Shown here one piece after another: positions 87-30,675 of a DNA stretch of 64,000 nucleotides. Under the pieces are notes generated by a model. It searched no databases and was not told where the DNA came from. It worked only from the letters and a program-made list of their open reading frames with translations. Position numbers and translations under genes: made by a program. This stretch comes from Isoetes taiwanensis (taxonomy: Eukaryota > Streptophyta > Lycopodiopsida > Isoetales > Isoetaceae). Position 1 is the first letter of the stretch, and every line of letters begins with the position of its first letter. The DNA lies in NCBI GenBank assembly GCA_021234155.1, contig JAJEKV010000126.1, forward strand, positions 186,001 through 250,000. Direction: 5' to 3'.

Positions 87-570
87 CCCGAAGGGCCCAA
101 AAATTTTTTTTAGTATAACAACCAACACATAACTACCATTAACATTAATTAACACAAACCATTGGGTCCAACACATTTAAATTAAAATCCCCCTAAACCC
201 CTTTGGTTTGGGCATATTCACACTGGGGGTGACGAAAGGGCCAGAGAGCCCTTATAATTATGTTTTGCACGTACAAAATCAACACCATATAGTATATTAC
301 CTGAAATCTTATAGTATTTTGCAAATCTTGTTATACATTATAACAAATTCTGTACATCCATACCCCACAAACGAGGAACTTTGTGTACGGTGTAGATTAA
401 GGAATAAGGGGTGAATATGCCTATCCAACAGCTCTCGTTGCCCGGAGTCACCCCCGTGTGAATATGCACCCAAACCAAAGGGGGTTTAAGGGGGATTTTA
501 ATTTAAATGTGTTGGACCCAATGGTTTGTGTTAATTAATGTTAATGGTAGTTATGTGTTGGTTGTTATGT
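87..570. mobile_element. Foldback/MITE-like element, copy 1
   Basis: Two arms of about 120 bases, 115-233 and 447-568, are near-perfect reverse complements, including the runs ACCATTGGGTCCAACACATT (left) and its complement (right). About 210 AT-rich bases lie between them. Homology to the second copy at 59.8-60.2 kb extends a little outside the left arm, so the real end may be near 87. No transposase is present. A 68-codon frame at 208-414 lies inside and is not a gene. The superfamily is not clear because I cannot fix a target-site duplication. Confidence 0.75.
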
Positions 571-2330: not shown

Positions 2331-5244
2331 TATATAGGACGTGGGCACCACCTACATGTGACATGGCTATATCATTATCTATCTATTGTTCTCACATATA
2401 TAATACTTCATCTATCTATCGTTCTCACCATGTTATACCAATGCAAGGTTGAGGCATATGAAAAACAACACCACACCGGAAACGAAATAAGCCAATCGTA
2501 GGACCGTATTCCAGTGAATTTGATAGCACAAAACATGAGTTGAAAAGTTCGTGATTCCTCGAATGCGAGATAAAATGGGAATGAAGTGCAAATCGGGGCA
2601 AAAAGCTTTTGAGCAAAGTAGATATGCCCATCGGAAAAGTATGTTCACGATAATTTAATCTTGTAGGTAGTTAAGCAACTTGCACAAGAAGCTCCCCGAT
2701 TTTCACTAGAAAATTAGATCTAATCTTCGGCTGATTTGGTTGCACACATGAAGAGGCAAAAGAGGTAACATCCATGAATTGTTGTTGGCCAAGATATCAC
2801 ACTAGCAAAAGGGGAGTACAACTTCAATGTATCGCGGAAAACCTAAACCTTTTCCAGCCAAGTACCAGTAGCGTTTTTGATATTAGAAGTGATTTTATGT
2901 TTGTATGGGTTGGGACCGCTTCGATGAGTTCATCCTTGGCCTTCAACTCTGTCTCCAACGCTATTATTTCCCAGTGAACAACAATGACTTAGCCCATTAT
3001 TTGGCGGGTAACAATGACAAAAGATCAATACATAAAAGGATAACATACCTTCTTAAGACATTCTTCTTTATGGGGTTCGTGATTCATGATTTTATATGAG
3101 TAAAACCACGGGGGGTTCACCTTATCACATGAGCATATGCCACCTCGTGCTTAAAGTGAGAAGAAACACCCCCTATATACCGCGACGCGAAAAGTGTTAG
3201 AAGAAACCCCTTCCGGAAAAAATACACACTAGAATGTCGGCAGAAGAGGGGATTTAAAACCCCTAGTATAATGCATCAAAACGCCGAGAAAAACCCCCTT
3301 CCATGCACTCACTAGGTTTATACGTCTTCGTGTGAATCCCCATGTAAAAACATTTGTAATTTCTTCACAGATTCCATGAACTCTTTCGCATGGCATTCAA
3401 CAACATCAACTAGAAATCCATAAGAAAATCATTAAAATATGGTGCATTTCAACAATACAAGACAATAAAGAATACCACCATGATGAGATGCATGTCCCGA
3501 ATGATCTATGTACTGAAAGTTCCCCGAAATGGGTAAGCAAGATAGCGCCAGAGCCATCCATAGCAGCCACCCAAATTATCATCATTCTCGCCTTTGGTTT
3601 TCTTTGCCCGAGGGGAATCCATTTGCACAAAGAAGGCTACCACCGCCATATTTATAATAATTTAGCCCTTAATGACGGAGGACTTTATTGAATATAAAAA
3701 ATAAAATAGCATGACATTTGAAGACAACAAAACGAGGCCAAGCCTTGTTGCAGTCCCTTTTGCAAGTTAAATAGCAAAGCACGGAGCAATTAGCCGTAAA
3801 TCATCCTCATCTCGTGGATAGGCTTCAATCTCGAGAATAAACAATTTACTTCCTTCGATTGTCCCCTCCAACAATTAACAATGCATGTACGAGATTCAAT
3901 GAACAAAAACAGCTTGACGCTGATAATAGAAAGAAAAGCATTTATGGCAAATATTGGAAACAGATTCGCATTGAAGAGTTGATTCGATACAAGTGTCCGT
4001 GATCCAATGTATGTCCATGTTGATCTCTTTTGGTTGTTTCTCATTATCAACAACGACATGTTCTCAAAAACACAAAAGCATATGAATTAGTTTATCCAAT
4101 ATGAACTCCTTTGAACAATCATGCCTTCTCTCTCAAGGGAAGCAAGATTACAACTTCTACCGGGGCTATTAAGGGAGCTTCTAGTCTTCTAATGAAGTGG
4201 AACACACAGTGCATGATCATGCATCATATATCTTTGTTTGGAGATAATGTCTTACATCGGCCTATGAAAACATGGTAGCAAAGTATATAAGAAGCTTGTG
4301 TCGCCATATTATACCTTGGTACCAAATGGGCGAAAAATTAAACAATAATTAATAGATTTTCAATTTGTAGAATGACCCGATTGATCTATGCGCCTTTATG
4401 TCAAGATGTAACCACAAGAACTATTTGCCTACATCATTTCATGTCTACTTTAGGCAACTGATTTCTTTAAAACCGGAAGGGCGCTTAGTTGGATGTTGAA
4501 TACCAGCCCCTCCTTTACTGCAAACAATTATTATACCATTGAGCTACTTTGTTCAAGATCAAACCCTGTGAGCTTCGCTAAAACCAAGATGCCGAGGTAC
4601 CGGCCAAAGGCTTTGTCTTTGGATAGATCCTTCATCGTGATCGTCCATGTAACAATCGCTTAATCTTTGTAAAAGTTTTGTACCGCTTAAGAACTCATTA
4701 ATCGAGACTTGTAGTTGATTATGATACAAATCTTTCTCGCTAATGGTAACGGATCTAGAGCCATATAATCCAAACACCCCCTTTAAAATCCAGGTTGGAG
4801 GCTAAACACATCATATACAATTTATTACAAGACTTGGGAAATGAAACATTGCACATGATGCCGGGTTGCCTAGACATTCTAGCCTGCATGGACACAAGTA
4901 TTGGCATTTCTAATCAAATGTTCTTACCTCACCAAATAATCGCTTAAATATCCTCCCAGAAATTCTAACTCTTTTTTCTATATAGCCATAAGCAAATTTA
5001 TCGCTCCCCAAGAAGAGCGTAAGCATTACAAATCGCTGACGTGCCATAGCCCTATGCTCGCTTTGTCTTAGCCAGCCATCCCAGGTTCAAACGTCCCCAT
5101 GACCCACAACGGAAGTGACCGGCCATTTACGAGGAACGAAGGTTTTAGCAAAATCCAGAGCATATCTTAGTATATTCCGCATATGCTTAGAATATGCGAA
5201 AACCCACATGATCGGGTTTTGCCCCCCTAGGGGCAACCCAAAAA
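2331..5244. other. Intergenic, no recognised gene
   Basis: Short frames occur on both strands (for example 3,406-3,630, 3,790-4,059 and 4,559-4,777, all minus). None shows a domain I know, a splice pattern or a regulatory context. The 4,559-4,777 frame is the most protein-like but I cannot assign it. Confidence 0.5.
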
Positions 5245-5588
5245 GAGGTTAGTGACGTGCCTTGTTGATGTATAGGAATTCTTGTAATAGGATAGGAAGT
5301 AGTAACGCGCCAGACTTTAGGATGAAACTTAAGAGTGCTAAATAATGAATATTCTATGAACTGCATCCACTTGGATGGAAAGATTGCATAGGTTGGATGG
5401 AAAGGTTGCATAGGTCATCAGCAGAGACGAACCATGTTACTTCAGGAAATATGTCCCCATGAAGATTGGGACCAGTGCCATCATAGAAGCTTGGGAAATT
5501 TGAGAAGCGACATGCTTTCATGAGTGTCATATTTGTGACCATTTTTCCAACAAACTAGCTTCCATTCAAACATGGCCCTACTCCCATT
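5245..5588 (-). pseudogene. Unidentified exon, copy A
   Basis: This is about 85% or more identical by eye to 7,655-7,992. Read on the minus strand it encodes HGDIFPEVTWFVSADDLCNL followed, after a shift, by a stretch ending YPITRIPIHQQGT. The conservation of amino-acid sequence between the copies suggests a former coding exon. Copy A carries a small internal duplication (GGATGGAAAGATTGCATAGG, twice) that breaks the frame. I do not recognise the family and assign no function. Confidence 0.45.
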
Positions 5589-7654
5589 AAACGAGAAGAA
5601 GTACAATAAGATGTAGCACAACAAGAAATAGGACAACAAGAAGTAGCACAATAAGCATTAGAGTTCTCGTCGAAGCTAAAAAGCTTTAAAACTAAGCTAT
5701 GGCCATATTTTGATCATTTTACAGAAGATCTTATGGGTGCAAAATGGGTACTGGATAGCATAAATCACCATCCGGACGCCGCTTACAAGTGCTTAAACTA
5801 GGCATTTAAAACTTTGATCTCTATTGAATTCAAACTTATATAATGCTGGCAGTGGTATGGAAGAGTTATGCAATGTTCAAGTTGTGAGTACATGCATTTT
5901 ATAAGCCGCAATAAAAGAATTTCTCATTTCATGGTTTAGTTTTATGCTTCACATGTAAGGTTTTGAATCTACAATTGCTAAGATAGAATTGAACCTAACA
6001 GTTCTATGCTTTGTTCGCTTTTGACTCACTATTGTATAATATGCGCCTAGGCCAACTATATAAAAAGGATATGATTGGACTGATGGTTTACAAGGTATTG
6101 TATTGCAAAGATTCATAGTTTAAGCTTTCATAAATTATCTTTGGATGGAACCTAACTATTTGTGTGTTTTAAGGCAAATGGTGCGATTACAAAGAGAGTT
6201 CATGAAGGCCATTATGCAAATTTTATATTTATCTAAGGTTATGCTATTCCACAATGATAATTTGCATCTTTCTATTTAGGCATTGATTATTAATTAGGTG
6301 TGGCGGGACGGCGGTGAACATAAAATTTAGCCTAGATCTTGGGCCATCGATGGTATTATCTCTGGAGTTAGATGCAAGGGATGACAATTAAATTGTATGT
6401 CTTTTCAATGTTAAACGGCCTTCATATGTTAGCATGCTAGATAGGTATGCTATTGCTTCCCTTTTCTGCACAACACGAATTATGTAGCACCAAAGATCCC
6501 ATATACTCTGTTCTGTTACGTTTCTCAGCCAATGTTTGCATCTGCAACCATGAACCTGCATGCGGAGGTTCCATATGCTCTAATTTTTTCAAGATTTCTC
6601 ATGCAAGAGATTGTTTAATGCAACGTATTTTCTCACCGTGTATGCTTTGTTCATGCCGTAATCATCAAGCGGTATCGCAAGTCTTTCTTGGCAAAATATG
6701 TTTATTTCCATGTTTATTTCCTACTTTACAGGTTTGAAAAAATGCAGCATTCCTTTAGAGTGCAAATTTTTAACTTAGCTCAAGGAAAATTGGCATGCAT
6801 TATATACATTAGGAGTAGTATAACGACTTTGGGTAGTAGGGATTTTGGCATTTGAGATTACAAATACAGTTGTAAAGGGATATAATTTGAATTAGACAGA
6901 GAAATAATGATTATCAAAGAAGAGATTCTGCCATTTGAGGCTGTCCAAAGGCTGGTATTGGAGGGCATGCATGTACTATGGAAAATTATAGTAGATTTAT
7001 AATATCAAATGGCTTGCATAATTCATGCATTGATTATATTCCCGTGTCAATGAGGATTTCATAATGTAACTCTAGCTTGATAAATTTGTATATCACGAGT
7101 TCCCCTTGGAACAACAAAGCGATAATAAAGAAGTAAAAAGAAGGCATTGAATTCTAATGATGAAATTCATGAAGCAATTCAAGTGCATACTATTTCAAGT
7201 GCATAGAAGTAAGCAGAAATAGATCAATTCGTTCACAAATATAAGAAGACAACGCATCCCTTCTTTTCCTTACTAATAGGTTAAGAAAGGACGGTCGAAT
7301 GCATAAACAAATTGTTGATTTCGCCTTTTTTTTTCAGTTTATGCCCAAAGAACGCTTAGGCACCATACTAGTAGACAAGATAAAATCTCCTCTCCACATC
7401 CTCCCACCCTCCTCATGAGGGCAACAAGCCAAAAATAGTTATGCAAACCCGGTGTTGAATTCTCCTCATCTGGCCTTCGAATTTCATCGGGATGCTCAAG
7501 ACCGTAGTAGATGTGTCTTTAGCAAAGTTTTCATCATAGCTTAAACAGTTTAATATGCAAGTGTTCGTGGAATTAATCAGTTTGGAAATCCATCCTTGAG
7601 CTGACAAAATAAAATGTGAATTAGCTAGGCAATAGAGATAACGCATTAGAAGAA
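5589..7654. other. Intergenic, no recognised gene
   Basis: The first 90 bases are a degenerate AGTAGCACAACAAGAA-type repeat. The rest is AT-rich with short frames only; a 96-codon plus-strand frame at 6,447-6,737 has no recognisable domain. Confidence 0.55.
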
Positions 7655-8045
7655 GAGGTTAGTAACGTGCCTTGTTGATGTATAGGAATTCTTGTAATAG
7701 GATAGGAAGCATTATAGCGCCAGAGTTTAGGATGAAACTTAGGAGTGTTAAGTAATGAATATTCTATGAACTGCATCCTTACATCGAGATCCACTTGGAT
7801 GGAAAGGTTGCATAGGTCATCAGCAGAGACGAACCATGTTGCGTCAGGAAATATGTCCCCCTGAAGAATGGGACCAGTGCCATCATAGGGAAGCTTGGGA
7901 AATTTGAGAAGGGGCCCGTGTTTATGAGTGTCATATTTATGACCATTTTTCCAGGACTCTAGCTTCCATTCAAACATGGCCCTAATCCCATTTTGCCCAT
8001 CATTCAAAAACATGGACTTGACTAGGATCACCATGGATGGATTTT
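7655..8045 (-). pseudogene. Unidentified exon, copy B, beside copia LTR
   Basis: An open minus-strand frame from Met at 8,034 reads MVILVKSMFLNDGQNG, then FEWKLESWKNGHKYDTHKHG, GDIFPDATWFVSADDLCNLS and YPITRIPIHQQGT. It is about 130 codons without a stop and is the better preserved of the two copies (copy A at 5,245-5,588). It ends about 40 bases before the copia 5' LTR. The minus-strand ORF just beyond the 3' LTR (12,554-12,838) points the same way, so the copia may have split one gene: that ORF would be upstream and this one downstream. The family is unknown to me. Confidence 0.5.
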
Positions 8046-8081
8046 TAGTCGAATATTAGCCACCGAAAGCGCGGTTAAGCG

Positions 8082-8638
8082 TGTTAGAATTAATGGCATA
8101 TGTTAATGCCATATTCGGATGGACTATTATAACACGAAACACTTGGTGCAATGTTAAAAAGCCAATGCATTGCATATACGTGTTGAATACATGCTTAGAA
8201 AGGGCAAAATAAAAGAAGAGGAGAGGACCCCAAGGACGTGAGAAAACAACTCCTTGAGGTGTTCTTACCAAGATCCGGGTTAGCGTATTGATTGATGCCG
8301 GCGCGGGATAATCCGTAAGGAAGAAGCATCGGTTGGTATTCCCAAAGTTGTGGAACCCAAAAGCACTTCTAGCGCATTTGACCTCCACGGCAGTGGAGCT
8401 CGGATCAAGACAAGGAGCTTGGCTGATCCGGTTTAGATCGATACTAGCGGGACCGCAGCTGCGAGCGAGGAGCGAGCTGTGTAGGGCTACCATGAAGAAT
8501 CGACTTGCCCCGGTTTCCGCCAAATTCATGCATTATGGTGTTTACAAGTCAGCGTACCGGGATTCTATCTATGAAGAAGTGTAATCCGAAGGAGACGGTA
8601 TTGGTATTCTTGGGTTCGATTCGGTCTGAAATCTAACA
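8082..8638 (+). repeat. 5' LTR of copia element
   Basis: 557 bases, TG...CA bounded. It begins TGTTAGAATTAATGGCATAT, with a small inverted GGCAT/ATGCC pair, and ends CTGAAATCTAACA. It aligns end to end with 11,987-12,559, but with many differences concentrated at CAG/CTG triplets. The 157-codon minus frame at 8,056-8,529 is a shadow of the LTR. Confidence 0.93.
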
Positions 8639-8650
8639 TTGGTATCGAGC
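8639..8650 (+). other. Primer binding site, initiator Met tRNA type
   Basis: TTGGTATCGAGC follows the LTR directly. The usual plant copia PBS is TGGTATCAGAGC; the observed sequence equals it with the A of CAG missing. Confidence 0.85.
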
Positions 8651-8667
8651 AAAGTTCAAGTAACCAT

Positions 8668-11600
8668 GGAAGCGGGCTAGAGAGCGGTTTCTCTCACCAT
8701 TGACCTCGAGTGAGAAAACTGATGATTGAGAAATAAAGGAGTTAAGGAATCGGATCACGCGGCATGCATGAATGGGTAATGGGCAATTGCGAAGTAAAAG
8801 GAAGTGGAAAATTTGGAATTTTGTCACGCGACCATACTGAGAAAATATGCTTGGAAAATGCTTTGTACACTCCCGGTATGTTGTATAATCTTGTTTTGAT
8901 GCGTGAAATTAGCGGATCACGGGTTATAAAAGAATTTTTGATGCTTCGCGTTTGAGATGGTGCGTAATGGAAAAATCATGTATGCATACGAAAGAGGTAA
9001 ATTATATTGTTTGGAAGCATTTCCATATATTGGAAGTAGGTTCACCGAGTTGTGGCATTTGAGATGTGGACATGCTAGCAATAAAACCGCATGAAATTAT
9101 GAAACATTGTTTGGTTGAGGCTTGCCCACTGGTTTTAGACAAGAAGAACATGAAATTGTCGTGGGTTGCATGCTTGGGAAGCGACTAGACTTGCCTTTCA
9201 TCCTCGTTTCCAAAACGTTGGGTATTTTGAATTTAGTTACATTCGATTTGTGTGGTCCTACGCGTTGGCAAGAGTATGAGTGGCAAGACCTACTTTATCA
9301 CGCTTATTTGATGATTTTCTAGAAGGATAGATGTTATTTTTTGAAATCTAAAGATCGCATTCCACGCGCTTTCGATTATATTTGGCGTATTTAACGTGAA
9401 ACTTCCTGCATTGAAAACGTTTGGTTCTGATTCGAGGGAGAGTATCTATCCCAGCATTTATGCAGTTTGTCGAGAAAAAGGGATAATGGTGTAACGAATT
9501 CACTTGTAGCCATACCCCCGCCAGAACGGCATCACGAAAGGAAGAATAGAACTCCTCATGAATGCAAAGGCGCTGTGGCGATGTTGAAGCATCGCGTTTG
9601 CCCAACATTATCCGCGGGCGTGAAGTTTCGCAGGCATGTTATTATCTAAGAATAAGTTGCCCCTCGGCGGGGATTAGAGGGAGAATTCGGAGGAAGTGTG
9701 GTGTGGGAGAAAAGCGATGGAGTGGTTCGCGTCTTGTATGGTTGTTTTAGCATACATGCATGTGCCTGAGGAGTTCGTTCCAAACTAGATGACGAAGTAT
9801 AGAAACTTACCTTGTTGGCTATGAGGATCGGGGGTATAGGTTGTATGATCCTAAGACTAGAAAAAATTCATGTAAGTCGAAAGATGTGGTGTTTGGCGAA
9901 ACCGGGTTTTATAAAGATAGGTTACGCAAAGCGGATATGGCGATAAAGAAAAGGAAGCTTGGAAAACCAACCTTGGGCTCCGGAAGGCTGGTTTGATGAT
10001 GAGATGATGAAAAGAAAGAAGAATATCAACACACGAAGATGTTGAGGCCTGTGGAGATAGAAGATGACATTGTGGAAGAACTTCCTAAAATGAGGATTAG
10101 AAAGGCGGTATGGAAGCGGGTTTTTGGAAGAACAGATTGAAGAGCGGTAGAAGTAGAGGTCGAGATGTAAGGGTTGAAGAACAAACCGAAGAGCGATTGG
10201 AACCCGGAGAGTAGAGGGTCGGGTTGAACCGCCTTCATCCACGGAGGAGTGATGCAGTAGAGATCAAAGAGAAAGTACCCTTTGGACACATCAAAATATG
10301 GAAGGGATGGCGTGGTAGAAGCGCATAACGCAGAGTCCCCGAAGATTTTAAGGAATATGAATTGGGGCCACCATCCATGTTATGTGTTGTGGAGCGAAAT
10401 CATAAGTGATGAAGGCTGTCAACTCACCCGGCGTAAAAAATGGCACAGGGGCAATGGAGGAGGAGTTGAACTCATTTAAATTGACAATGCACCTATGATT
10501 TAGTTTAGCGTCCCAAAAAGGAAGAATGTTGTGGGATGTAAGTGGATTTTCCGTTTGAAAAGGGGCCTGATGGTGAAGTTAGAAAGGTACAAAGGCAAGG
10601 TTCGTGCATACGGCTTCACTCAAAAGGAGGGTATAGATTACCACGATACATTTTCTCCTATTGTTAAACTAACCGGTTTGAGAGCTTTAATAGCCCTCGG
10701 GTAGCTTGGAGCATAACTGAACTTGACCATATGGATGTAAAAACAAATAAGCAAATGGGGATTTGGAGGAGGAAATTTTCATGGAGCAAACCGATTGGCT
10801 TCTCGTTGCAAGGCAACAAAGTTTGCAAAAGCTGAAGAAAGTTTCTTGTGATACCTGCCATAGATTGTCAAAGCAACTGATATATAATGTATGTATGAAT
10901 TCTTCTTATTATCTCTAAGGGTTTGAAAAGTTAGCGAGTGAAGGAAATTTATACATATCAAGAGTAGGTGATGAGTCTCTTGCATTATTGCTTTGTATGT
11001 TGATGACTCAAGGTGAATGACCGGCTGGTGAAAGCAATGAAAGCTTTTGGATGAATGCAAAGCTATCCTAAAGCCGTGTTTGAGGATGAGTGGATCTTGG
11101 TTGTTTAAAGAAGCTTTTAGGATGGAGTCCGCCACTTCTAAATAGGGAACCGAGTGCTTATGTTGACCTCAAGCAATATATTAGAAAGATGCTTGATAAG
11201 TTTTTATGATCTGAGTGTAAACCGCTCCAACCCCCTAGTGGTTAATAATAAAATCTGGGAGTATAAATCCGGCGCGACCGGTAAACAGGCGCGCGATGAA
11301 GGAAAACACCATATAGGGAACTCCATAGGAATACTTTTGTAAGCCAATGCGCGCCCCATGGATGGTGCCATGAGTCCATGATGAATCAATCCAAAGTTGG
11401 GCACACCGGGTCGCCGTCCGGAATTTTGTGTACTGAAGGAACTGATAGAGCCGGGATTGCCATAAGCGTGATGGGAACCCCGAAATAGCGGTGTTTTGCG
11501 AGCTTTTGGTTATCTCCAGCGTGATGCAAAACGGGTGGGAGACTTGATGAGCCAAAGTCTACCCGCGGGATATCTTTGCAAACTCAATGGGGCCGATGGT

Positions 11601-11900
11601 ATTTCATGGTGTAGTAAGAAACGCAATTGCACGGGGCAAAGACGTCTTGAAATTCGAGTATATATCGGCGGCCGTCGTTATGTAAAATAATTTGGCTAAG
11701 GAGACCTGAGATGAACAGGGGAGAAGCAAGAGAATCCAACTAAGTTATATTGATAACAAAAGTTGTATAGCTATAGCTAAAAATCCCTTTGCATTCGGTG
11801 ATCTAAACACATTGATTTGCATATCATTTTATTCGAGAGAAGGTGGTCAAGGAGAAATTGATTTGGCAATATATCCCTACTAGTAGACGGAAAGAAGCGC
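8668..11900 (+). pseudogene. copia gag-pol polyprotein remnant
   Basis: A candidate start ATG lies at 8,668, but only about 100 bases separate it from a protease-end/gag-pre-integrase region, so gag is missing or collapsed. Then come, in order: ALYTPGMLYNL (about 8,860-8,892), LWHLRCGHASNK (about 9,050-9,085), FDLCGPT of the integrase core (about 9,243-9,265), QNGITK/ERKNRT-like strings (about 9,530-9,550), GYEDRGYRLYDPKTRK (about 9,818-9,865), KVRAYGFTQKEGIDYHDTFS of RT (about 10,596-10,655), the RT catalytic box YVDD (10,996-11,007), and RNase H signals NKSCIAIAKNP and SREGGQGEIDL (11,750-11,870). Many stops and frame shifts interrupt it. Family assignment is firm; whether all breaks are real is not. 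Confidence 0.88.
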
Positions 11901-11976
11901 ATATTTTGACTAAAAGCGTTGGGTGAAAAGGAAACATGTCGAGTTTAGAAGTGCTATTGGCATTCGAATATGGCAT

Positions 11977-11986
11977 GAAGGGGGAG
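11977..11986 (+). other. Polypurine tract
   Basis: GAAGGGGGAG lies directly upstream of the 3' LTR, where plus-strand priming would occur. Confidence 0.85.
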
Positions 11987-12559
11987 TGTTAGAATTAATG
12001 GCATATGTTAATGCCACCATATTCGGATGGAACTATTATAACACGGAAACACTTGGGGCAATAATGTTAAAAAAACCACGTATTGCATATACGTGTTGAA
12101 TACATGCTTTTTAGAAAGGGCAAAATAAAAAGAAGAGGAGAGGACACACAGTGACAGGAGAAAACAACGAGGAGGTGTTCTGAAGATCTGGTTAGCAGAA
12201 GGCGATTGATGTCTGGCGCGTGGATAATCCGCCAAGGAAGAGCATCGGACGGATTGGTATTCGGGTTGTGGAACCCAAAGCACTTAGCAGATTGACGGCG
12301 TTTTACAGTGGCAGGAGTCGGATCAAGACAAAGGAGCTTGGCTGATCTGGTTTAGATCGATACCAGCAGGGCACTGCAGCAGACAGGAGCAGAGCTTTGT
12401 GTAGGAGCTGCAAGAAGAATCGACTTGCCCTGAAGCTGCCAAATTCATCTGTATGGTGTTTACAAGCTGCGGCTGATTCTATCTATGAAGAAGTGTAATC
12501 CAGAAGGGAATGAGTGACAGGTATTCTTAGGTTCGATTCCCAGGCTCTGAAATCTAACA
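11987..12559 (+). repeat. 3' LTR of copia element
   Basis: 573 bases, TGTTAG...TAACA. Compared with the 5' LTR it keeps many CAG and CTG triplets that appear there as CG, CGT or CCG. Near its end it contains AGGTTCGATTCCC, which matches a tRNA B-box by chance or descent. Confidence 0.92.
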
Positions 12560-12838
12560 GGGCGTGATTGAGAAATTTATAACATCTGGAAAGAAACCGA
12601 AAGCAAAATCAAATTGCACGAATTGGGTACCTGGAACTGCGACTTTGAGAAGCTTTGTCTTTACATTGAGTTGAGATCCGTCGTGTTTAAGAAAGGGCAG
12701 GAGCAAGAAACTGGCCACAATGTTCTGTTTGCCAAAGTAAGGATATGGAACTTGTAAAACTTCATGGTCGCAGATATCATCCTGGATTACATCCAGGATT
12801 TGCCAACCCGCTTCTTCGTCCTCGCAATTTTCTCCCAT
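12554..12838 (-). CDS. Unidentified ORF split by copia insertion?
   Basis: A 94-codon frame starts MGENCEDEEAGWQILDVIQD, continues through PYFGKQNIVASFLLLPF, and runs into the copia 3' LTR boundary at FSITP. The only Met candidate is at 12,838 after an AT-rich, stop-containing leader, so this could be a true N-terminus. It is collinear with the minus-strand ORF at 7,655-8,034 on the far side of the element. I do not recognise the family; acidic start and mixed composition look protein-like. Whether both ORFs belong to one protein is inference. Confidence 0.45.
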   Translation of the reverse strand: MGENCEDEEAGWQILDVIQDDICDHEVLQVPYPYFGKQNIVASFLLLPFLKHDGSQLNVKTKLLKVAVPGTQFVQFDFAFGFFPDVINFSITPC

Positions 12839-15779
12839 GTTAACTTCTATCTATTCAAGGCGCCAGATCTTCATCTCAACGCTGCCCAAAAGTCTCCTTT
12901 TGCTCTTAATTTAAGAGAAAACACATTCAATCGGCTTTTCTAAATGGGCTTCTTCTAAAATGGGTTGCATCACATAGCCCGCACCATGGAAGCTTTCTTT
13001 TCACGCTGCAAATTCACATGGCTGTGTCCATTGTCAATGTAAGATATCTTATTTTACAGCCTGCATACCGCCTCACTCCTTTTTTTTTTTACTTAAACCG
13101 GGACATTCCGCGAACAGCTTTCCACATGCAACATTAAATGCTTTAGGAGGTGATTTAGGACCTTCCAGAATAAATCGATGATTTTTCTGTAACATTGATT
13201 GCCACTATATAGGATCTTCTCCGTAATCATCTCGAGCAGTTGGTGCAATCGGTAAGTAATTTTGAAAACAAGATCACGTATTCTTGCTTTTGGAGGCTTT
13301 TTTTTTTAAGTTGCCATAAGCTGATAGGGGTGTCCTGGAATATTCCATCACATGTTTACTACAAGAAAGATCATGCATCTCGATTTCTGAATACATTGGA
13401 AGAGAAAGCAGATTATCTTGTATTATCAGACTAATTTTGTCATCCTTGCCTTGGGAAAACCTTTTTCCTCCTATTTGGAAAAATTCCTGTAGTTTCCTCA
13501 CCCCATCAAAATTTTCAATTTCCAAACGGATTGTTCCTACAAACAAAATTCACAACTGGATCCAATTTCACAAAACATCAGATGAAATTTATCAGTGGGA
13601 AAGAAATTTCAATCAAGTAGAAGAACCAGTTGTACAGAAGATTAAGAGATATTCTACAACAAATTGATTGAAGAGCGCTCAAAGCCGAGCTGCTTTGGAA
13701 GAATAGATGGAGCTGGAGATTACAGGGTTGAAAAATATGGAAGAAGCAGGACAGCAATTGTTGAATATGATAGTGTGTATCAGTGTGTATCTGTGAGTTT
13801 TTTAAATGCAAAGCATCCAAATTAGAATGCACATCCATATTTATAGAGGATAGGATGATTGATAGAAGATCCAAAGAACAAAGAGATAAAAGGCAAAAAA
13901 ATGGAACCCTGTATATCTCAAGCGAGATGTGGTTAATGTGGCATCTGTATCAGCCATGAAGAACAACGCGGCGGTTTGAAGCCCAAAAACCAACTGTGTT
14001 TTTGGCCCCAAGACCATATCTACCTTCACTGTTTAATCCGACTCCACGCAACGCAATCACCAGCGATTATTTGCCTATTCGTGTCTGCCCAGTAATAGCA
14101 AAATTGATTTTTTTCTTATTATCTATGCCAAATCTTCTTCTAGTCGCTGCGCACATCAATTTCAATTCCGCCAGCTTTTTTTTTTTTCGTTTTCAAATTC
14201 ACCCCTTCTTGCTTCCATTTCTAATTTTGCCAACTACATCTCCAATTTTCTTCTCTCGACACGCTCTTTCTCTAGTTGAACCTGAAACGCCAATTCCCTT
14301 TCTCGCAATGCCACTCTCAGCAGCTCCTTGTCTTTTTATAATCGCTCCCTTCCAGCATCTACATCATCCGGCACTTTCTTTTCAGGCTCAAGTCCGAAAT
14401 TATTAATTAGCAACCTCAATAATACTTCCGCAAATAAAGGCAAAATCATGGCCAATATCTTATTTTTCGATGAAGTGGATAGTGAAAATGCAGAAAAAAG
14501 TTGAAAACAAAACAAGTCAAACCTGGGATCTGAGGAATGGTTTGGTGCAAATAAAGATATGAGGATCTAAAGTTTTGGGCTATCCACCGAAGAAAGTGAA
14601 AGAGATGCATGCATGCCATCCATGCTGGTTATATGTCGACTCCGTGTCTAGACTGACAATGACTATAATATCCCAGTCATATGGTGCTTATATTTGTAAA
14701 GCTTTGACATCGATGTAATTATTGCAGTGCAAAAGATGTCTTAATGTGCTTATTTTTGGCCTTTGTTTGTCATACATTAAATGTGTGAGCTACACATACG
14801 TTATTCCAATTTAGGGCTTCAACAACATCAAGTTACTTAGATAGTTAATTGACCCGAAAATGCTAAAAAACAAATTTCGCTAGAATAGTAAACATTAGTG
14901 CAGAATTTATAATGTGACAAAGTTGACAAGGCCGGGATATGTTTGTGCTAAGGAAGATCGGGTTCCACACTATATACATAAAACTTTCCATGTCTCCTAA
15001 GATCATGTCTTGACATAGTCTGCAGATAGCTACTACATCTATACCTAGTATGTAGCCACATTTGGCGAAAAGTTATGTGTCCAAAAAAAAAAAAATGGCT
15101 ATATTTGATACATGGTATGTAGCAACATTTGCAATCCTTTGGCTAAGTTACATGCCTTCCTTTACGCATCTTTATCAATGAGGGGAACTATTGCCAAAGC
15201 TTTGAAACACCGTGATTCCATCCAATATAAAGTAGCATCCCGACTATTTCAAGTTGTTATAATTAGATACCCTCGCACATGAATTTAGCTACATGTGAGC
15301 AACAAAAAAAGAACCGGAAAAGGATGGGGAAGGGGGGAGGGAATAAACCGATAAAAGTTGGTCTTCCAGAAGACTTTGCAAAGAAGTGTTCAAATGTGAA
15401 CTTTGCATAGCTCAAGCTTATAAGGGTTTGTCGACATTTCTCAATGCATTTTTCCGTGATGATCCACTTTACCTTTCATTCTTTATTTCAAAATATATAC
15501 CTAAGTAGGATATAAGAATTTCAAGATTCATGCTTCATGTTGCATAAAAACAAAGAGTAAAAACTCATATGCAATGGGATTCTAGAACATCTCCATTAGC
15601 GGTGAAAAGAAATCATTCCACAACAAGGCTTCATGCTCCGTGCGGGTGCTATTTAATACAACAAGTTAATAGATCTTGGTCAGAGGGAACACTAAGCACC
15701 ACAACCCAATTCAACTTAACAAATCCCATTTGGAGCGAGGGTTCATGGAGGCAACCCCGCGTAAAGTGATAACGGCTCG
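12839..15779. other. Intergenic, low-complexity frames only
   Basis: A minus frame at 13,274-13,546 (begins MFVGTIRLEIENFDG) faintly recalls a copia gag start but lacks other support. A 136-codon plus frame at 13,996-14,406 is rich in Pro/Phe/Leu from pyrimidine-rich DNA and is not convincing. No other gene is seen. Confidence 0.5.
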
Positions 15780-16330: not shown

Positions 16331-16979
16331 CATGGCTAAGAGGGAAGTTTTTAAATAATACGATAATAATGCCTAGGGTATGATGAGAGTTCTAGCAATG
16401 TTGTGTGCAAGCTGAGAAAAACAATGTAACACCTTAATCAGCTCCATAGCAATGGCTCATTATATCTAGAAGTTTCAAACTTTCCAATTCGAATTAGCTT
16501 ATTGCATCTAAAAAGAGAAAGATCAAAATTCACAAGTTACACATCTAAAGAGCATATTTGAGAGAAAGGTTGACCTGGTCTCAATACACCGAATAATATA
16601 TATGCCATAACCCTGAAGGCCAAAGACCATTGAAAAAAAAACCGGGACGTTCTTGATGTAGCAAAGATCTCTGCACCATATAACTTCATCATCTTCCGAT
16701 GCTACAACATCTATAATAAAGTCAGCCATGCAAGAATGTTGATAAATCTATCCACAATTTGTGTAACATTTTGATCACAAAAATAATCTGTACAATTACA
16801 ACTATTTATTATCTCATGAGAAGTCAATCCAAAGCCAAAGATGCTTGAAGAGGGATGCAAAAAGTTTTACGTTAGAAGCACTCCTTGAGGGATGCCCTCA
16901 ACTACAAACAGCTTTTTGAAGCCGGGGGCACATAAAGAATTAAACTCCTCAAATGGTAGCGCGACCCAGGAGCTTACAT

Positions 16980-17235
16980 CCTGCAGATTTCGGTAGGCCG
17001 GACTTGCTCTTCTGGGGCATGGTATTTTGAGAGCCTACTTGTTGGTTTTTCCTCCCCAAGTGGGGTTTTTTCATCCCAGAATAGGGATCTCTTGTCTACC
17101 GATTACATTGTTTGTTTTTTTTTTTGTGTTGGGGTTTTGGCTTTTTTACTGCTCTGCATGTAGTCTCTCAGGCCTCTCGCCCTCCGTGGACGTGCTAAAA
17201 TAAACTTCCTTCCTTCCTTCCTTCCTTTGATAGAT
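16980..17235 (+). mobile_element. Probable LINE 3' end with (TTCC)n tail
   Basis: Pyrimidine-rich text with TTTTTGTGTTGGGGTTTTGG, then TCTCAGGCCTCTCGCC, then a terminal TTCC microsatellite (about 17,206-17,228). This resembles the 3' untranslated end of plant L1 elements, here without its coding part, as expected of a 5'-truncated insertion. Confidence 0.45.
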
Positions 17236-17807
17236 TCAAAGCTTTAGTAGAAATACGATGAAGTAGACTGAGGTATATAAATTTCCTAGATGCATCTACT
17301 TCAAGAAAATGCGATGGAACTTCAACCGCTTCATGGTTAGCGGGATCATAGCATGGTATCCCCACTCAGAAAGCAATCTTTTGAGAACTGCCATTTTTAG
17401 TTTCTCCACATGAACAAGTACAACATGACAAGGATCCACATATTTCACAAGATCCATACGGATGGGGTGTTGCTGGTAAAATGTAGGCAAAGCACTGGAA
17501 GCCCGCTTAGATCCGGCCACGCCCTATCCCTTTGCTGGAGACCCGTGATGGGCATCTATTTGTCCGCCATGGCTTCCTTCCAGTCGGATCTAAGCCGCTT
17601 CAAAAAAAAAAGACCTATAATTACTTGGCTTTTCTAATTTTCCTGGCCCTACGATCCGAAATTACAGAATCGGATGACTCAAATGATTACGACTAACGTG
17701 ACACAAACGCGGCATAGCTAGAAATGCGTAAAAGTGGGCAGTTCTAAAGGGTAAAACCCCGCTTAACCAGCGTAATCAGGGTTGGGAAGAAGGCTAGGCA
17801 ATGGCTC

Positions 17808-18400
17808 GCGTTGTTGTTCTTTTCCATGGTAATTTGAAGATCGGCGCGGCACCTTTTTAGGTTTTTTTTTTTTCCTTCCCATGCCCGCAAAGGCTTGATT
17901 CCTTTGAGAAATGATACGGAGTTTTAAGAATTGCACGTTGAGTTCCAATTACTGGTTTGATATGATGCCAAATGGAATTGTGTGTTAATAGGAATTATAC
18001 ACATAAGGAAAAGGAATGCCAACGAAGATACGGATCTGTGCGAATGGCCAAGACGGATAGGCAGGCAAATGAGATCAACTTCCATATCTTTTCCTTGACC
18101 ACTGTATCAATGGATAACCATTCAATAACATGGTTCTCTTTGCAACCTTTTGCAACTTTGAGGACCCTTGCATGTGTTGATTAACTGAAATATAGCATCC
18201 GATATGATTAACATGCAACTTATTTACATAGACTGAAGTAAAGCTCTAAATTATTGACCTTTTGATCGCGTTGGTTTTTTTTGTGGTAGTTCGTGGAGCG
18301 GCGGCGACCTTCTTAGGGTTTTTTTTTTTCTTCTGGTATGCCTGCAGAGGCTTGGTTACCTTTGAGTAGTTACCAAGATTTAAGAATTGCGCGTAATGCA
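17808..18400 (+). repeat. Duplicated ~130-base segment
   Basis: 17,808-17,945 and 18,267-18,400 share the order GCGTTG, a GCGGC block, a GGTTTTTTTTTTT run, GCCTGCA/GCCCGCA and AAGAATTGC. The spacer is unrelated sequence. No coding potential is evident. Confidence 0.6.
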
Positions 18401-20140
18401 CGTCCCCACTACTCAGTCATGTCTAAATAAGCATTTGGTAAAAAGACTAGACTATTGTGGTCAAAAGTCCAAGTGGAAAAAGTCCAAAGTTCTCAGATAG
18501 GAATCAAAACCTCAAAAGATTGGGCATCAAACAACTACTTGAACATGTTTAAAGGTTGAATGTGTTGGAGATGTACCATTTCCTCGGACGGCAAAATGGG
18601 GATTGCCACAGGTTTTGAACTGGCTACATTAGCGGCGTCTTGTTCGGCTGGAAGTCCGCCGTCGTAGGCTTGAGGTAAGGGTGGATATTAATTTTGGAGA
18701 GGTAAGCGAAATGTTTCAATATTAGCCATGTAAAAAGATGCGTATGTCAAAAGATCTGTAATGCGCAAGTGAAATATGGTTCAATCTGTCATGTAAAAGA
18801 CATGAAACAACCTACGATAGTTAGACATTTTGTTGACAACCTTAATTTAGATTGCGGAGAACAAAGTAAAATTGTTTTATATTATGTGAACCACACACAA
18901 CTATTGTGACTAGTGTACATTCCTTTGCTGACAGTTACGATTGCTTGTGCTCATCATCCACTGGATATTGCAGGGGTTTAAATATAATCACATTCGATAA
19001 GGCGCCCGCTTGGACTGGGGTGGTTCCTCTATCTGCACTAGTCAGTTTGCACCATTCCTTGTTTGGAATGCATTATAAAGGCTCCACAACTTAACGCAAG
19101 TGAGGTTGGGATGCCCCAACTATGAAGCCCAGGGGGTGCACATAATGGAAACCGTATAAAAATATGTGCCGTGTACCTGTGGGGGGTTATTTTAAGGTAT
19201 TTCCGGCACGATACGTACGGGTGAGGTAAGGCCACAATTTTGTTAGGGTACGTTAGGGGTAGTTTAATTAATGGTCTACACCCACATGTCTCAGATAATG
19301 CTAGAGGTGTAGGGTTTTTTTCGCCCGGTCGTATCTTAAAGGGGTTGAGAAGCCTCGAGGTCTCGCGGTGGCTCTAGAGCTTTCGCATCTTAAATGCTGT
19401 TTGGCAATTGGAATTTGGTACTTCTTCTGGTGGCACTGCGGCTACGGTAGTTGTATTTTGGCAGTAGTCATTTCTTCGGTAGTGTTCCAAATAGATCTCA
19501 TTTAATCGACAATGAAAGATCAAGGCATTACAATGGCGTTGATGGCCATGGTCGCTATGGTGATGCACCTGGCTTAGAAGAACAATATATGGGATTAATT
19601 TCTAGGTAAAGCTACGGTTTAGTGGCAGTTGAGTGGTTGGTTAACCTTGAAGATAATAGCAGCTCTCAACCTTCTTTTTAACGACAACTAAGAAGGTTTA
19701 AAACAAAATCGATCGGCTCTGCTCTGACTGAAAAGAAAGTTATCAGGGCAAAAGATCTGTCTGAATGCTACAGTATGGCATGCATTGAGCAAGGAAAATC
19801 ATCCTGATGTTGAGCTCCAAGTTCTGATGCCAGATTTAGAAGCTTCTACGGGAATCTGTGATATTCTCCATTCTTTCAGGCTGCAAATCCATCAGCATCG
19901 TCCTTGGTACATAACGAGTAGGTAAATATCTAGACATTCATCCTCTCCAATTGGAGATCAGAGTATGCTGTATGATGTTATTTTTTTCGTTTTTTTTGCA
20001 GCATTATTGTGGCTTCATTTCTTGCTCTGTTTTCTGAGTTCGATTTGCAAATGTATGGCTCTACATTTATATTTTTTGTGGTTTTTATATACAAATATTT
20101 TCTTCTAACCTTCTTTTCTTTTGTACAGAGTTTCTAAACA
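18401..20140. other. Intergenic, no recognised gene
   Basis: Mixed-composition DNA with short frames only. A GC-richer patch near 19,090-19,330 has partial inverted symmetry (GTGCCGTGTAC and CCGGCACGATACGTACGGG) but no named feature. Confidence 0.5.
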
Positions 20141-20145
20141 GCATT

Positions 20146-20600
20146 TTGGGAACGAGATTACAAATGTTTAGAGCGGATGTAAGGTTAGTTATGATTGTTC
20201 GTTTTTATTTTTGTTTTTTGACTTGGCCAATAGGCCATCTAACATGGCTTTGTATAAGGTTTGTGATCAGTTGGCTCGGGATTCTTGTCAATGGTACATA
20301 TATGGCTTGTTGGAGAACCACAATCGTAGAATTAGAAAGTGCGATTTCCTTTATCGATTTAACATTAGTTCTGCTAATAACAATTATGCATTGCCTGACA
20401 GTGACAAGACAAAGTTTGATAAGTTTGTGAGTAATTTCTTTGCAATGACTTGCTTTTGGTAACTAAACTAACTGTCTAAACATTTTGAACATTTTGCAGA
20501 GACCAAGGGAAAGCATCCAGCACAAATGATTAAGATTAAGACCAAGAAAGGCAAAGTTGATTTTGGCCATGATGTTGTTATAATGGTATTAAATTTTATT
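20146..20600 (+). other. Candidate exons of unknown gene
   Basis: A plus frame gives LANRPSNMALYKVCDQLARD then DSDKTKFDKFVSN, followed by a possible donor GTGAGT at about 20,427. After a short AT-rich intron-like stretch, a second block from about 20,500 reads TKGKHPAQMIKIKTKKGKVD. The composition is exon-like and it lies just upstream of the beta-amylase exons, but the residues do not match the beta-amylase N-terminus as I know it. Function unknown. Confidence 0.3.
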
Positions 20601-21325
20601 TGCATTTCATTTGTTGGTCAGGTTGCAGTTTGTTCAGGCTTGATAAGTAGTGCTTGTGCTAAGTTCAATATTCTTGTAATGCACTAAATTACCATGGTGT
20701 GATATTTCTATTAAAAAACCGGCTGGTTAATGCTAGTTCCCAAGGCACAGATTGCATGTGTTGGGCTGTTGTAATAGAATAACTATTTCCAGAACTTTTT
20801 TAAGAACTACTTCATGATTCAAAGTTTGATAGCATAGGGGAATGCAACATAAGAATAATTTTACAAATAGTAGAAGTTCAGACCTATTTTAAGCTTTTAT
20901 TGTTATGCTGATTTTTAGCTTCCCTAGCTAAAAAGATAGGAAACTGGAAAAGACAGGTTGGTTCTTAGCAGCGATTATATAGTGGAGCAATTTATAGGGA
21001 TTTAGATGCAGAGCCGATGTGAAATGCTACATGGATTTTTGGTTTTTTTGGAACCTAAATGTTGAATTTGGCAGACCTTTGCATTTTAGAATGTTAGGGC
21101 TACTTTGTGATCTTAGTCTACCTATTTTTCTGGCCTTCAGATGCTAGGTGCTGCAAAGTTGTCCTTCGTCTGCAATTTGACACTTCACATTTGCATTCAT
21201 TCATTTGTTTTCTATATGTCCTTTGGAATAGGCTGCTCAATGCATGTGATAAATTCTGCAAAATAGAATAATGTTTGAACCTAAGCTTGCAGAAGAGATG
21301 TTTACTGTATCTTTTGATTATATAG

Positions 21326-22650
21326 GCATGGCACTAGAGCTGCTTCCAGAATCATGTGCGATAAATACTGTTAATAAGCATGGAGAAGAAAGAACGTGGT
21401 GTATTAAATTGGCGCACCGGACTTGAGGTATAGTGTTTAAGTCATTGTCAAGCACTTGTTTATAGTTTTTGCATTACAAACAACATTCTTGAATTTTTTG
21501 TCTCGTACACAGGTTTATTTTGACTTCATGAGGGGTTTCTGCTAGGCATTTGATGACTTTTAAGGATGGGACTATTGAAGAGATTGAAGCGGGTCTTGGT
21601 TCATGTGGGGAGTTGCAATATCCTTCATATCCTTTAAAATATGGTTGAAATTATATTGGCATGGTGAATTTCTGGTGTGCCTTTTACCTTTTAGGACTGC
21701 ATAAAATTATGTTCCAAATTTACAGACTTTTTGCTAATAGTTTGAACGTTAAAAATCATGATTTATGGATGTTAGATTCTTAAAATTGGATATATAAAAT
21801 CATTTATATTTGTTGTTGCTTGCAGTGTTACGATAAATATTTGATGTGCAAGTTGAATAGAGCTGCAACGAGTCGAGGACGCTCGAAATGGGGCGTGGCA
21901 CCTATTAATGCAGGGGATTACAACTCCTCATGGGGTGTGCTTTTTCTGTGTTGGAGGGCATTATGGTAGCTATGATGGTTGCTTTTTTTTTTCGTGGTAT
22001 TCTGAAATACTTATAAATTATGGGGATGAAGTCTTAGTCTTGCCAAACTTGCTTTTGGAGACAAGAATTTCTAGCCAAGGTGAGCTTTCCTAAACTGGGG
22101 CAACGGGTCAAACTGTAAAAGGATCACTGAGCTGACCTCATTGTTGTTCCTTAACAGGTTTCTGGCATTGACTAGCGGTATAAAACGGCCCGGTCATCCT
22201 GCTTTCTAATTAATTAAAGAGGTTTTCACAATCCAACTCACCCGAGATGGATATGCCTCAATTGCCTAGATGTTTGCCAAGCATAATGTGGAGCTTCCGG
22301 GAATGCACTTTGATAGGAATTATTATGAAGCTTTGTCAGATCTAGAGGATTTAGTCTGGCAGGTATATTCTCTGATGCAATGCAATCACTTAAACAATCC
22401 TTCATCTTATTTCAGACATTTTGAGTTGTTTGCTTATAAGAAATGTGTTTGATTTTAGGTGTTGAATACTGCATGGGATGTTGGAATTGATGTAGCTAGT
22501 GAGAATGCACTCCCTTGTTAAAACAAGGCTGGATACAATAAAATTCTTGAAAATGCCAAGCCTAGAAAAGACCCAGATAGATGGGCGGCACATGCACTTT
22601 TACTTACCTTAGACTGGCTTCGGCATTAAGTTATGTGGCAAGTCTTGCAT
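21326..22650 (+). pseudogene. Beta-amylase-like gene, 3' exons
   Basis: Five exon-like blocks with plausible GT/AG borders encode the C-terminal half of a glycosyl hydrolase family 14 protein (hydrolyses starch to maltose). Exon A (21,326-21,427): NKHGEE, ending before VYFDFMR. Exon B (21,513-21,674): [26 protein letters not shown]. Exon C (21,826-22,079): CYDKYL, WGVAPINAGDYNS, then after a +1 shift GGHYGSYDGCFFFSWYSEIL. Exon D (22,158-22,362): VSGID.RYKTA, TRDGYASIA.MFAKH, LEDLVWQ. Exon E (from 22,459): VLNTAWDVGIDVASENALPC, YNKILENAKPRKDPDRWAAH. The wording fits the BAM2/BAM7/BAM8 (BZR1-BAM) clade best from memory. The N-terminal half, including any BZR1 domain, was not found upstream. Two stops and one frameshift suggest a pseudogene, but both stops in exon D fall in CAG/CTG contexts that this assembly corrupts elsewhere, so a functional gene is possible. 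Confidence 0.85.
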
Positions 22651-29949: not shown

Positions 29950-30190
29950 ATGGCTTCCTTTGCCTAATCATCCCGAGAACATCCAAACCATCAAGTGCTA
30001 AGCATGAGCTACATTATGCTAATAAAGGGTGTCAAGATGGATCCATGGTCGTAATCCAAAGCAGATGGTCCCAAGGAGTGCTTCGGTGAAGCTCATTCGC
30101 GTTGTGATCCAACCTATATTGGCTTCCCCATCGAGATCTATGAGTTGAATGCCAACCCTCAGCTGTTGATGATGAGTGAATCGATGATAT
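29950..30190 (+). pseudogene. Small ORF, module 1, broken
   Basis: From the ATG at 29,950 the frame stops after five codons (MASFA). Later in the same register an open stretch reads KADGPKECFGEAHSRCDPTY then IGFPIEIYELN. The DNA aligns with the 67-codon ORF of module 2, but the reading frames do not agree, so either the module is non-coding or the frames are disrupted. Confidence 0.35.
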
Positions 30191-30392
30191 GTATACCACC
30201 GTTAAGGATATAATAATATAAGCACTTATGATTTGTGTAATCATAAGGATATAATAATATAAGCATAGTGAATATTAGTTGATATATAGAACCGAGTAAT
30301 TAACATTTCATACTTTGTAATGAAAGTATATAATACTTACAAATAATGGCGCCACAGCCACCCCAATAATTCACATCAATAATTTTACTTCA

Positions 30393-30400
30393 CTATAAAA
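30393..30400 (+). promoter_or_regulatory. TATA box, module 2
   Basis: CTATAAAA in CACTATAAAAGCAGCCATTC, 41 bases before the ATG at 30,434; upstream TTCACATCAATAATTTTACT is identical to module 1. Confidence 0.6.
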
Positions 30401-30433
30401 GCAGCCATTCGGGCTAGAGGTCATTCATCTCTC

Positions 30434-30637: not shown

Positions 30638-30675
30638 GGGGATCACCACAGATCATGATGATGAGTGAATCACCA

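What the first reader, a model, noticed from the sequence alone, without database searches (positions are those of the whole stretch)
8082..12559. CAG/CTG triplets systematically corrupted between repeat copies
In five independent pairs, CAG in one copy reads CG or CGT in the other. 3' LTR GACAGGAGAAAAC is GACGTGAGAAAAC in the 5' LTR; AATCCAGAAGG is AATCCGAAGG; the PBS TATCAGAGC is TATCGAGC; duplicate at 27.35/27.65 kb has TACAGGAGG/TACGTGAGG and TTCAGAAAC/TTCGTAAAC; foldback arm CCCCCAGTGTG is CCCCCGTGTG. CTGG often becomes CCGG (GATCTGG/GATCCGG). Plants methylate CHG sites, and uncorrected nanopore reads err there. This would make many frameshifts, stops and LTR differences artefacts. The pattern is seen; the cause is inferred.
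Basis: partly seen in the sequence, partly recalled or inferred. Interest (0 to 1): 0.75.

Follow-up and report, generated by a model that had tools for sequence, protein, structure and literature searches.

The report
Nanopore errors at methylated CAG/CTG sites
In this plant assembly many CAG and CTG triplets in patches of repeat DNA are misread, very probably because nanopore sequencing stumbles on methylated cytosine and short reads did not correct those patches, so many apparent mutations there are not real.

Summary
By a first-order Markov model CAG and CTG are the window's two most depleted trinucleotides (445/835, 449/758), in patches; five tubulin loci are near 1.0. In three elements with unequal LTRs, CAG/CTG of one LTR survive in the other at 3/28, 4/16 and 3/14 sites, other trinucleotides at 254/341, 258/268 and 247/260. 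Lost sites mostly gain a CG rather than showing C>T; [A/G]CG sites are hit too. 5S rRNA genes show it as well: CATCAGAAC reads CATCGAAC in 25 of 44 units, beside letter-identical clean units. Size and contig number nearly match the published Isoetes taiwanensis assembly (nanopore R9.4.1, Racon, Pilon; passages of PMC8566536). Best reading: methylated CHG, partly CG, cytosines were miscalled and left where Illumina polishing failed. Methylation was not measured. One repeat pair of the window shows no bias. It is a new member of a known kind, nanopore errors at modified motifs.

The parts
8081..8638 (+). 5' LTR, CAG/CTG-corrupted copy (7 CAG/CTG in 558 nt)
8651..11985 (+). element interior, CAG/CTG-depleted (bins 8001-10000 and 10001-12000 at 0.44 and 0.43 of expectation)
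11986..12559 (+). 3' LTR with CAG/CTG largely kept (24/28 against copy L007) but indel-rich
12104..14680 (.). segment of normal CAG/CTG density
   Evidence: two-state HMM; bin 1.19
16816..22555 (.). segment of near-normal CAG/CTG density
   Evidence: bins 0.87 and 0.91
38780..42185 (.). segment of somewhat higher CAG/CTG density
50169..55831 (.). segment of somewhat higher CAG/CTG density (holds the 676-N run 51493-52168)
30021..33000 (+). piece of a high-copy repeat family; CAG/CTG 32 against 83 expected; compared with six other copies
115..568 (.). foldback (arms 115-201 and 482-568); the strings CCCCCAGTGTG (minus strand at 219) and CCCCCGTGTG (451) lie just inside the ungapped arms
5240..7992 (+). 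repeat pair 5240-5588/7650-7992 without CAG/CTG bias (counter-example)

Best explanation
The CAG/CTG variants are assembly errors. Native plant DNA, methylated on cytosines in CHG (CAG, CTG) and CG contexts of repeats, was read by nanopore with a basecaller not trained on methyl-CHG. The call at methyl-C in CAG/CTG turns into CG-containing or other wrong products. Such errors recur at the same motif and survive long-read consensus. Illumina polishing (Pilon) removed them where short reads could be placed, but not in other patches, notably repeats and perhaps late gap-fills. Shown here: the context bias, the patchiness, the product spectrum, hits in functional sequences and context-specific loss in several repeat families. 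Inferred: the organism and hence the sequencing method (from assembly size, contig number and a paper's methods), methylation as the trigger, and failure of polishing as the cause of the patches.
For: CAG/CTG depletion that is patchy (log-likelihood gain 39.2 against at most 0.1 in each of 10 shuffles, the shuffles fitted with 20 instead of 60 rounds). LTR pairs of single elements: 3/28, 4/16, 3/14 CAG/CTG kept against 254/341, 258/268, 247/260 other trinucleotides; control element 28/28 and 317/317. Lost sites with clean anchors (41 of 75 lost in four LTRs, 134 of 194 lost in three repeat copies) gain a CG in 30/41 and 75/134, against 1/10 and 5/19 between intact copies; TAG or CAA outcomes 4/41 and 5/134 against 6/10 and 5/19. 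CG density rises as CAG/CTG density falls, r = -0.98 (7 copies) and -0.86 (14 LTRs). [A/G]CG kept 93/250 in corrupted against 109/119 in intact comparisons; LTRs alone 25/40 against 38/40. Primer-binding site changed in two of three copies looked at. 5S: CAG/CTG 75/176 kept, other 2284/2860, CATCGAAC in 25/44 units, five letter-identical units among noisy ones. Tubulin loci L019-L023 at 0.90-1.09. Separable from general noise: L006 keeps 5/28 CAG/CTG but 86/87 AT-only trinucleotides; L010 keeps 24/28 with 17 indel events to 10 substitutions. Likely Isoetes taiwanensis: 1,658,258,908 bases in 1110 contigs here; 1658.30 Mb in 204 scaffolds plus 909 contigs in print, ONT R9.4.1, Guppy 3.1 flip-flop, Racon, Pilon, LR_Gapcloser (PMC8566536 passages). 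Precedent: about 70% of ONT consensus errors of a Klebsiella genome in CCAGG/CCTGG (PMC6591954 passages).
Against: No reads and no methylation data were available. The repeat pair 5240-5588/7650-7992 shows no bias. A matching 1-kb part of the C943 and C974 copies is low in CAG/CTG in both (12/26, 12/27) without such corruption, so small natural deficits occur. 59 of 134 lost sites in the high-copy family do not gain a CG, and at two of the four 5S sites (78, 111) the usual products contain CTTG or CTTTG, not CG, so 'mC is read as CG' is incomplete. CCG, also CHG, is hit less than CAG/CTG (52/103 against 129/569 kept). Corrupted copies also have more other errors (other trinucleotides 0.86 against 0.93 kept; 254/341 in the window's own LTR pair), so lack of polishing and methylation are only partly separated. 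The classes 'corrupted' and 'intact' were chosen by CAG/CTG content, so pooled retention is partly circular; LTR pairs, CG gain and CG loss are less so. The nuclear plastid-copy test was uninformative.
Confidence: 0.88

Rival explanations
1. Motif-only basecaller error: the pore or basecaller misreads CAG/CTG k-mers regardless of methylation, and polishing alone decides where errors remain.
For: Corruption is absent in letter-identical, apparently polished units and copies; the preserved tubulin and plastid-type loci may simply be better polished.
Against: [A/G]CG is hit as well, as expected for 5mC. L010 keeps CAG/CTG although rich in other indels and L006 loses them although otherwise clean. 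Published ONT errors at Dcm motifs nearly vanish with models trained on Dcm-methylated data (PMC6591954 passages).
Confidence: 0.07
2. Errors introduced by correction software (Racon, Pilon or gap filling) rather than by the reads.
For: PMC9364492 (abstract and one section) reports self-correction adding errors in an ONT plant assembly; short duplications are seen in the window's 3' LTR.
Against: Correction errors have no evident reason to single out CAG/CTG and CG (inference).
Confidence: 0.02
3. A real in-vivo mutation process that targets CAG/CTG in repeats (a RIP-like defence or faulty repair of methyl-C).
For: It is repeat-associated and context-specific, and transposons are where plants place methyl-CHG (PMC8514461 passages).
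Against: It would have to hit 75-89% of CAG/CTG in one LTR and largely spare its partner, change the primer-binding site and 25 of 44 5S units in the same way, and alternate with clean units. The genome nearly matches a nanopore assembly.
Confidence: 0.01
4. Ordinary CHG deamination over time (C to T), giving natural CAG/CTG depletion.
For: Intact-intact comparisons show it: TAG or CAA in 6/10 and 5/19 differences.
Against: Only 4/41 and 5/134 of lost sites in corrupted copies are TAG or CAA; CG rises instead of falling.
Confidence: 0.02

Closest known systems
Nanopore consensus errors at Dcm sites CCAGG/CCTGG (Wick et al. 2019, PMC6591954; passages seen)
   Same: 5mC in a CWG context, untrained basecaller, errors survive into the consensus, clustered on the motif
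   Different: Bacterial, one five-base motif; here CAG/CTG in general plus part of CG, patchy by locus
Modification-mediated ONT errors, Modpolish (PMC10687267; outline and section 6 seen)
   Same: Low-quality ONT genomes blamed on modifications absent from training
   Different: Listeria, mainly mismatches, no motif named in the part read; here a plant with many indels at CAG/CTG
Regions uncovered by short reads in ONT assemblies of polyploid plants (Veratrum, PMC9364492; abstract and section 14 seen)
   Same: Error-dense patches that short reads do not cover
   Different: The word 'methylation' does not occur in its main text; methylation context was not the subject
Species-specific basecallers for plants (PMC9749173; passages seen)
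   Same: Attributes plant accuracy loss partly to methylation differences
   Different: 'CHG' does not occur in its main text

Membership tests
Modification-induced nanopore consensus errors | Native DNA read by nanopore with a model not trained on the modification | not testable with these tools
   Inferred only, from the near match of assembly size and contig number to PMC8566536
Modification-induced nanopore consensus errors | Errors concentrated in a methylation motif | tested here: met
   counter-example pair 5240/7650
Modification-induced nanopore consensus errors | The same motif gives recurrent wrong calls at independent loci | tested here: met
   CATCGAAC in 25/44 5S units; same primer-binding-site reading in the window and L006
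Modification-induced nanopore consensus errors | Errors disappear with unmodified DNA or accurate reads | not testable with these tools
   No reads held
Modification-induced nanopore consensus errors | Unmethylated DNA is spared | tested here: inconclusive
   Tubulin loci and a plastid-type contig have normal CAG/CTG, but may simply be better polished
CHG deamination / RIP-like mutation | C to T transitions (CAG to TAG or CAA, read in the CAG orientation) predominate | tested here: not met
   4/41 and 5/134 of lost sites

The most novel reading that the evidence does not exclude
The uncorrected patches of this published assembly are a readable archive of cytosine methylation. Methyl-CHG is decoded largely as CG, so the local CAG/CTG deficit and CG excess in the FASTA could map which loci, and which LTR of an element, were CHG-methylated in the sequenced plant without signal data. 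On this reading the 5' LTRs (the corrupted ones in all five elements judged unequal, two of these from match identities alone) would be more methylated than the 3' LTRs.
Probability: 0.25. Interest if true: 0.6.

Novelty: new member of a known kind. Interest (0 to 1): 0.42.

Why it matters
Where this pattern stands, LTR divergence (and so insertion dates), frameshifts, stops, pseudogene calls, CpG content and repeat identity are unreliable. In two LTR pairs 25 of 34 and 22 of 28 differences lie within 3 nt of a CAG/CTG; in the window's own pair 71 of 126. A count of CAG/CTG against expectation is a cheap quality test for nanopore plant assemblies, and may double as a crude methylation map. In the eight paper searches that bore on this no listed title or abstract beginning described CAG/CTG-to-CG corruption of a plant assembly; only listings were seen for most hits, and the library lacks most subscription journals.

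Tried and rejected
Natural CHG deamination: rejected by the product spectrum. Genome-wide compositional bias: rejected because stretches of the same genome range from 0.35 to above 1.0. Nuclear plastid copies as a known-truth test: uninformative, because the nuclear rbcL-like copies differ by about 10% from the 34.6-kb contig C840 and the short ones share the letters of another copy. Supposed haplotig pairs: the C61/C1026 pair aligned only over a gene region, its flanks did not align; in the C943/C974 pair the first 60 difference columns shown look like ordinary variants. Origin of the richer segments: 12.56-14.8 kb is partly duplicated and repeated sequence, 52.2-53.4 kb a repeat family; whether polishing or lack of methylation preserved them stayed open. 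The eukaryotic 18S rRNA search failed by machine error and was not repeated; 5S was used instead.

Rows dropped or chosen: the 14 LTR loci are the best 14 of 31 matches; the six repeat copies were taken from the top and bottom of a list of 40 scored candidates. In the pooled counts the LTRs L009, L011, L015 and L018 were left out (reversed, partial or intermediate) and L008 was not pooled; the intermediate copies L049 and L054 were counted apart (23 of 52 anchored lost sites gain a CG). In one search L049 and L054 were left out and each corrupted repeat copy was compared with two references, so those counts are not independent. Of 8 C937 stretches fetched 3 were all N, of 12 stretches of other contigs 2 were all N. 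The 5S loci are the 7 best-scoring of 47 listed matches; they gave 43 units on C13 and 1 on C986. Several paper hits were seen only as listings.
Full report
What was checked. The window is G000:C937:186001-250000 of a 1,658,258,908-base, 1110-contig assembly. By a first-order Markov model CAG (445 against 835 expected) and CTG (449 against 758) have the lowest ratios of the 64 trinucleotides, while CCG (1.15) and CGG (1.02) are not depleted; by single-base composition CGT and ACG are lower still. It is read after the 5' LTR of another copy, L008 on C1051, while the window and the copy L006 read TGGTATCGAGC (three copies looked at).

Patchiness. In 2-kb bins the CAG/CTG ratio is 0.3-0.7 over most of the window but 1.19 at 12-14 kb, 0.87-0.91 at 18-22 kb, 0.79 at 40-42 kb and 0.84 at 54-56 kb. 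A two-state HMM improves the log-likelihood by 39.2, against at most 0.1 in each of 10 shuffles, and gives nine richer segments, the longest at 12104-14680, 16816-22555, 38780-42185 and 50169-55831. Elsewhere, five further stretches of C937 gave 0.52-0.75 (three more were all N) and four stretches of C1030 0.68-0.78; ten stretches of other contigs gave 0.63-1.04, pooled 514/592 (two more were all N). Five tubulin loci, the best-scoring ones, gave 0.90-1.09, and a plastid-type contig 1.32. So the deficit is neither uniform nor a fixed property of the species.

LTR family. The best 14 of 31 LTR matches were fetched, on C937 and eight other contigs. Against L007, L008 keeps 28/28 CAG/CTG, L009 27/28, L010 (the window's 3' LTR) 24/28, L013 15/18, L016 and L017 14/18 each. 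L005 (the window's 5' LTR) keeps 4/28, L006 5/28, L012 4/18, L014 3/18, L015 3/13, L018 6/18 and L011 11/28, while trinucleotides made only of A and T are kept at 84-99% in these. The cleanest test compares the two LTRs of one element, identical when it inserted: C937 3/28 kept against 254/341 other trinucleotides more than 5 nt from a CAG/CTG; C1046 4/16 against 258/268; C963 3/14 against 247/260; a control element on C1051 28/28 against 317/317. On C1077 both LTRs are poor in CAG/CTG and share none (0/3, 0/4). Of the differences between the first three LTR pairs, 71 of 126, 25 of 34 and 22 of 28 lie within 3 nt of a CAG/CTG, in 38%, 29% and 27% of the columns; outside, the C937 pair still differs at 55 of 376 columns, so that contig is noisy in general.

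Other pairs inside the window. The diverged pairs at 42.5/45.9 kb (1/16 and 1/12 kept against 857/1468 and 871/1440) and 57.4/58.5 kb (1/9 and 1/11 against 424/871 and 436/875) agree. The pair 5240-5588/7650-7992 does not: 6/6 and 6/8 kept.

A second family. A 3-kb repeat piece (30.0-33.0 kb) has 40 scored candidates; six were fetched. CAG/CTG per copy runs from 32 to 84, and CG rises as it falls (r = -0.98 over 7 copies with the window; -0.86 over the 14 LTRs). From copy L050, CAG/CTG are kept at 14/84 in the window, 23/84 in L051, 21/84 in L053, 34/76 in L054, 55/84 in L049 and 67/84 in L052, other trinucleotides at 0.82, 0.86, 0.85, 0.85, 0.94 and 0.93.

What CAG/CTG turn into. Between intact and corrupted copies, 30 of 41 (LTR) and 75 of 134 (repeat family) lost sites with clean anchors gain a CG; 4 and 5 are the deamination products TAG or CAA. 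Between intact copies it is the reverse: 1 of 10 and 5 of 19 gain a CG, 6 of 10 and 5 of 19 are TAG or CAA. Away from CAG/CTG, ACG/CGT and GCG/CGC are also lost in corrupted copies (93/250 kept against 109/119), CCG (52/103 against 45/59) and TCG (121/211 against 80/105) less so, other contexts with C or G a little (8618/10020 against 3679/3958), AT-only likewise (2558/2899 against 1105/1178). In the LTRs alone [A/G]CG is kept at 25/40 against 38/40. These pooled classes were defined by CAG/CTG content, and the use of two references makes counts non-independent.

Known truth. In 5S rRNA genes (the 7 best-scoring loci; 44 units, 43 on C13), CAG/CTG are kept at 75/176, CG at 221/352, CCG at 315/440 and other trinucleotides at 2284/2860, relative to one unit. 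CATCAGAAC reads CATCGAAC in 25 of 44 units and is intact in 16. Five units, the reference among them, are letter-identical and sit among units with 1 to 71 differences. Such alternation is hard to explain in a real array and is what short-read polishing would leave if it corrects only the units on which reads land (inference). The primer-binding site makes the same point: the CG reading would mispair with the tRNA primer (recalled knowledge of LTR elements), yet it recurs in two of three copies.

Separating noise from context. L006 has lost CAG/CTG (5/28 kept) with AT-only trinucleotides at 86/87. L010, the window's 3' LTR, keeps 24/28 although it has 17 indel events to 10 substitutions. So corruption at CAG/CTG is not just general lack of polishing; a locus-specific factor seems to act as well. 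Methylation is the obvious candidate, but it was not measured.

Which genome, and how it was made. Isoetes taiwanensis was published with 1658.30 Mb in 204 scaffolds and 909 contigs (1113 in all; 1110 here), sequenced from ligation libraries (so native DNA, inferred) on ONT R9.4.1 with Guppy 3.1 flip-flop, assembled by minimap2/miniasm, polished with Racon and Pilon, scaffolded by Bionano and gap-filled with two rounds of LR_Gapcloser with one Pilon round between (PMC8566536, passages). The identity is very likely but inferred. Gap-fill of the second round would then not have seen Pilon; this is my inference. Precedents: Dcm methylation (5mC in CCAGG/CCTGG) made about 70% of nanopore consensus errors in a Klebsiella genome and nearly none after training on methylated data (PMC6591954, passages); modified Listeria genomes (PMC10687267, section 6); error-dense patches not covered by short reads in an ONT plant assembly (PMC9364492, abstract and section 14). 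The role of CHG methylation in silencing plant transposons is stated in PMC8514461 (passages). Whether Isoetes itself has strong CHG methylation I did not find (search listing only).

Why CG. My inference, untested: a basecaller that met methyl-C in training mostly before G would tend to call methyl-C as C followed by G. It fits CAG to CG, CGG, CGT and CTG to CCG, but not the 59 of 134 lost sites that gain no CG nor the two 5S sites whose usual products contain CTTG or CTTTG.

Verdict. Observation confirmed, interpretation supported. CAG/CTG-linked frameshifts and LTR differences in this window should not be read as biology without accurate reads. The remaining open step is methylation against motif alone, which reads or bisulfite data would settle.

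Noticed in passing
G000 C937, C1046, C963, C778, C949 (LTR family of window 8081-12559): In the five elements judged to have unequal LTRs the 5' LTR is the corrupted one (C778 and C949 from match identities only, C949 with a 109-nt 5' match and its pairing assumed); C1051 is equal and C1077 mixed. n is too small to exclude chance.
   Followed up: partly
G000:C13:281389-304503: 5S rRNA units in which five letter-identical units sit among units with 1-71 differences, which looks like all-or-nothing polishing.
   Followed up: partly
L002 (G000:C840) and L001 (G000:C1052:5414403-5418329): Two rbcL reading frames differing by about 10%: one intact on a 34.6-kb AT-rich contig, one inside an 11.4-Mb contig with threonine where the other's start methionine stands. 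The short nuclear pieces L039, L040 and L041 share L001-type letters. One of the two may be foreign or transferred.
   Followed up: partly
window 12560-13690: Sequence with further copies on C937 (290-308 kb), several on C1035 4.13-4.28 Mb and one on C1018, 80-97% identical over parts of it.
   Followed up: partly
window 5240-5588 and 7650-7992: Repeat pair 87.7% identical with no CAG/CTG bias, so its differences may be real.
   Followed up: no
window 52194-53390: Repeat family with about 40 scored copies at 71-75% identity across the genome, right after the 676-N run.
   Followed up: no
G000:C937 at 500 kb, 1.0 Mb and 1.6 Mb: Three of eight sampled stretches of this contig are entirely N (gaps or withheld).
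   Followed up: no
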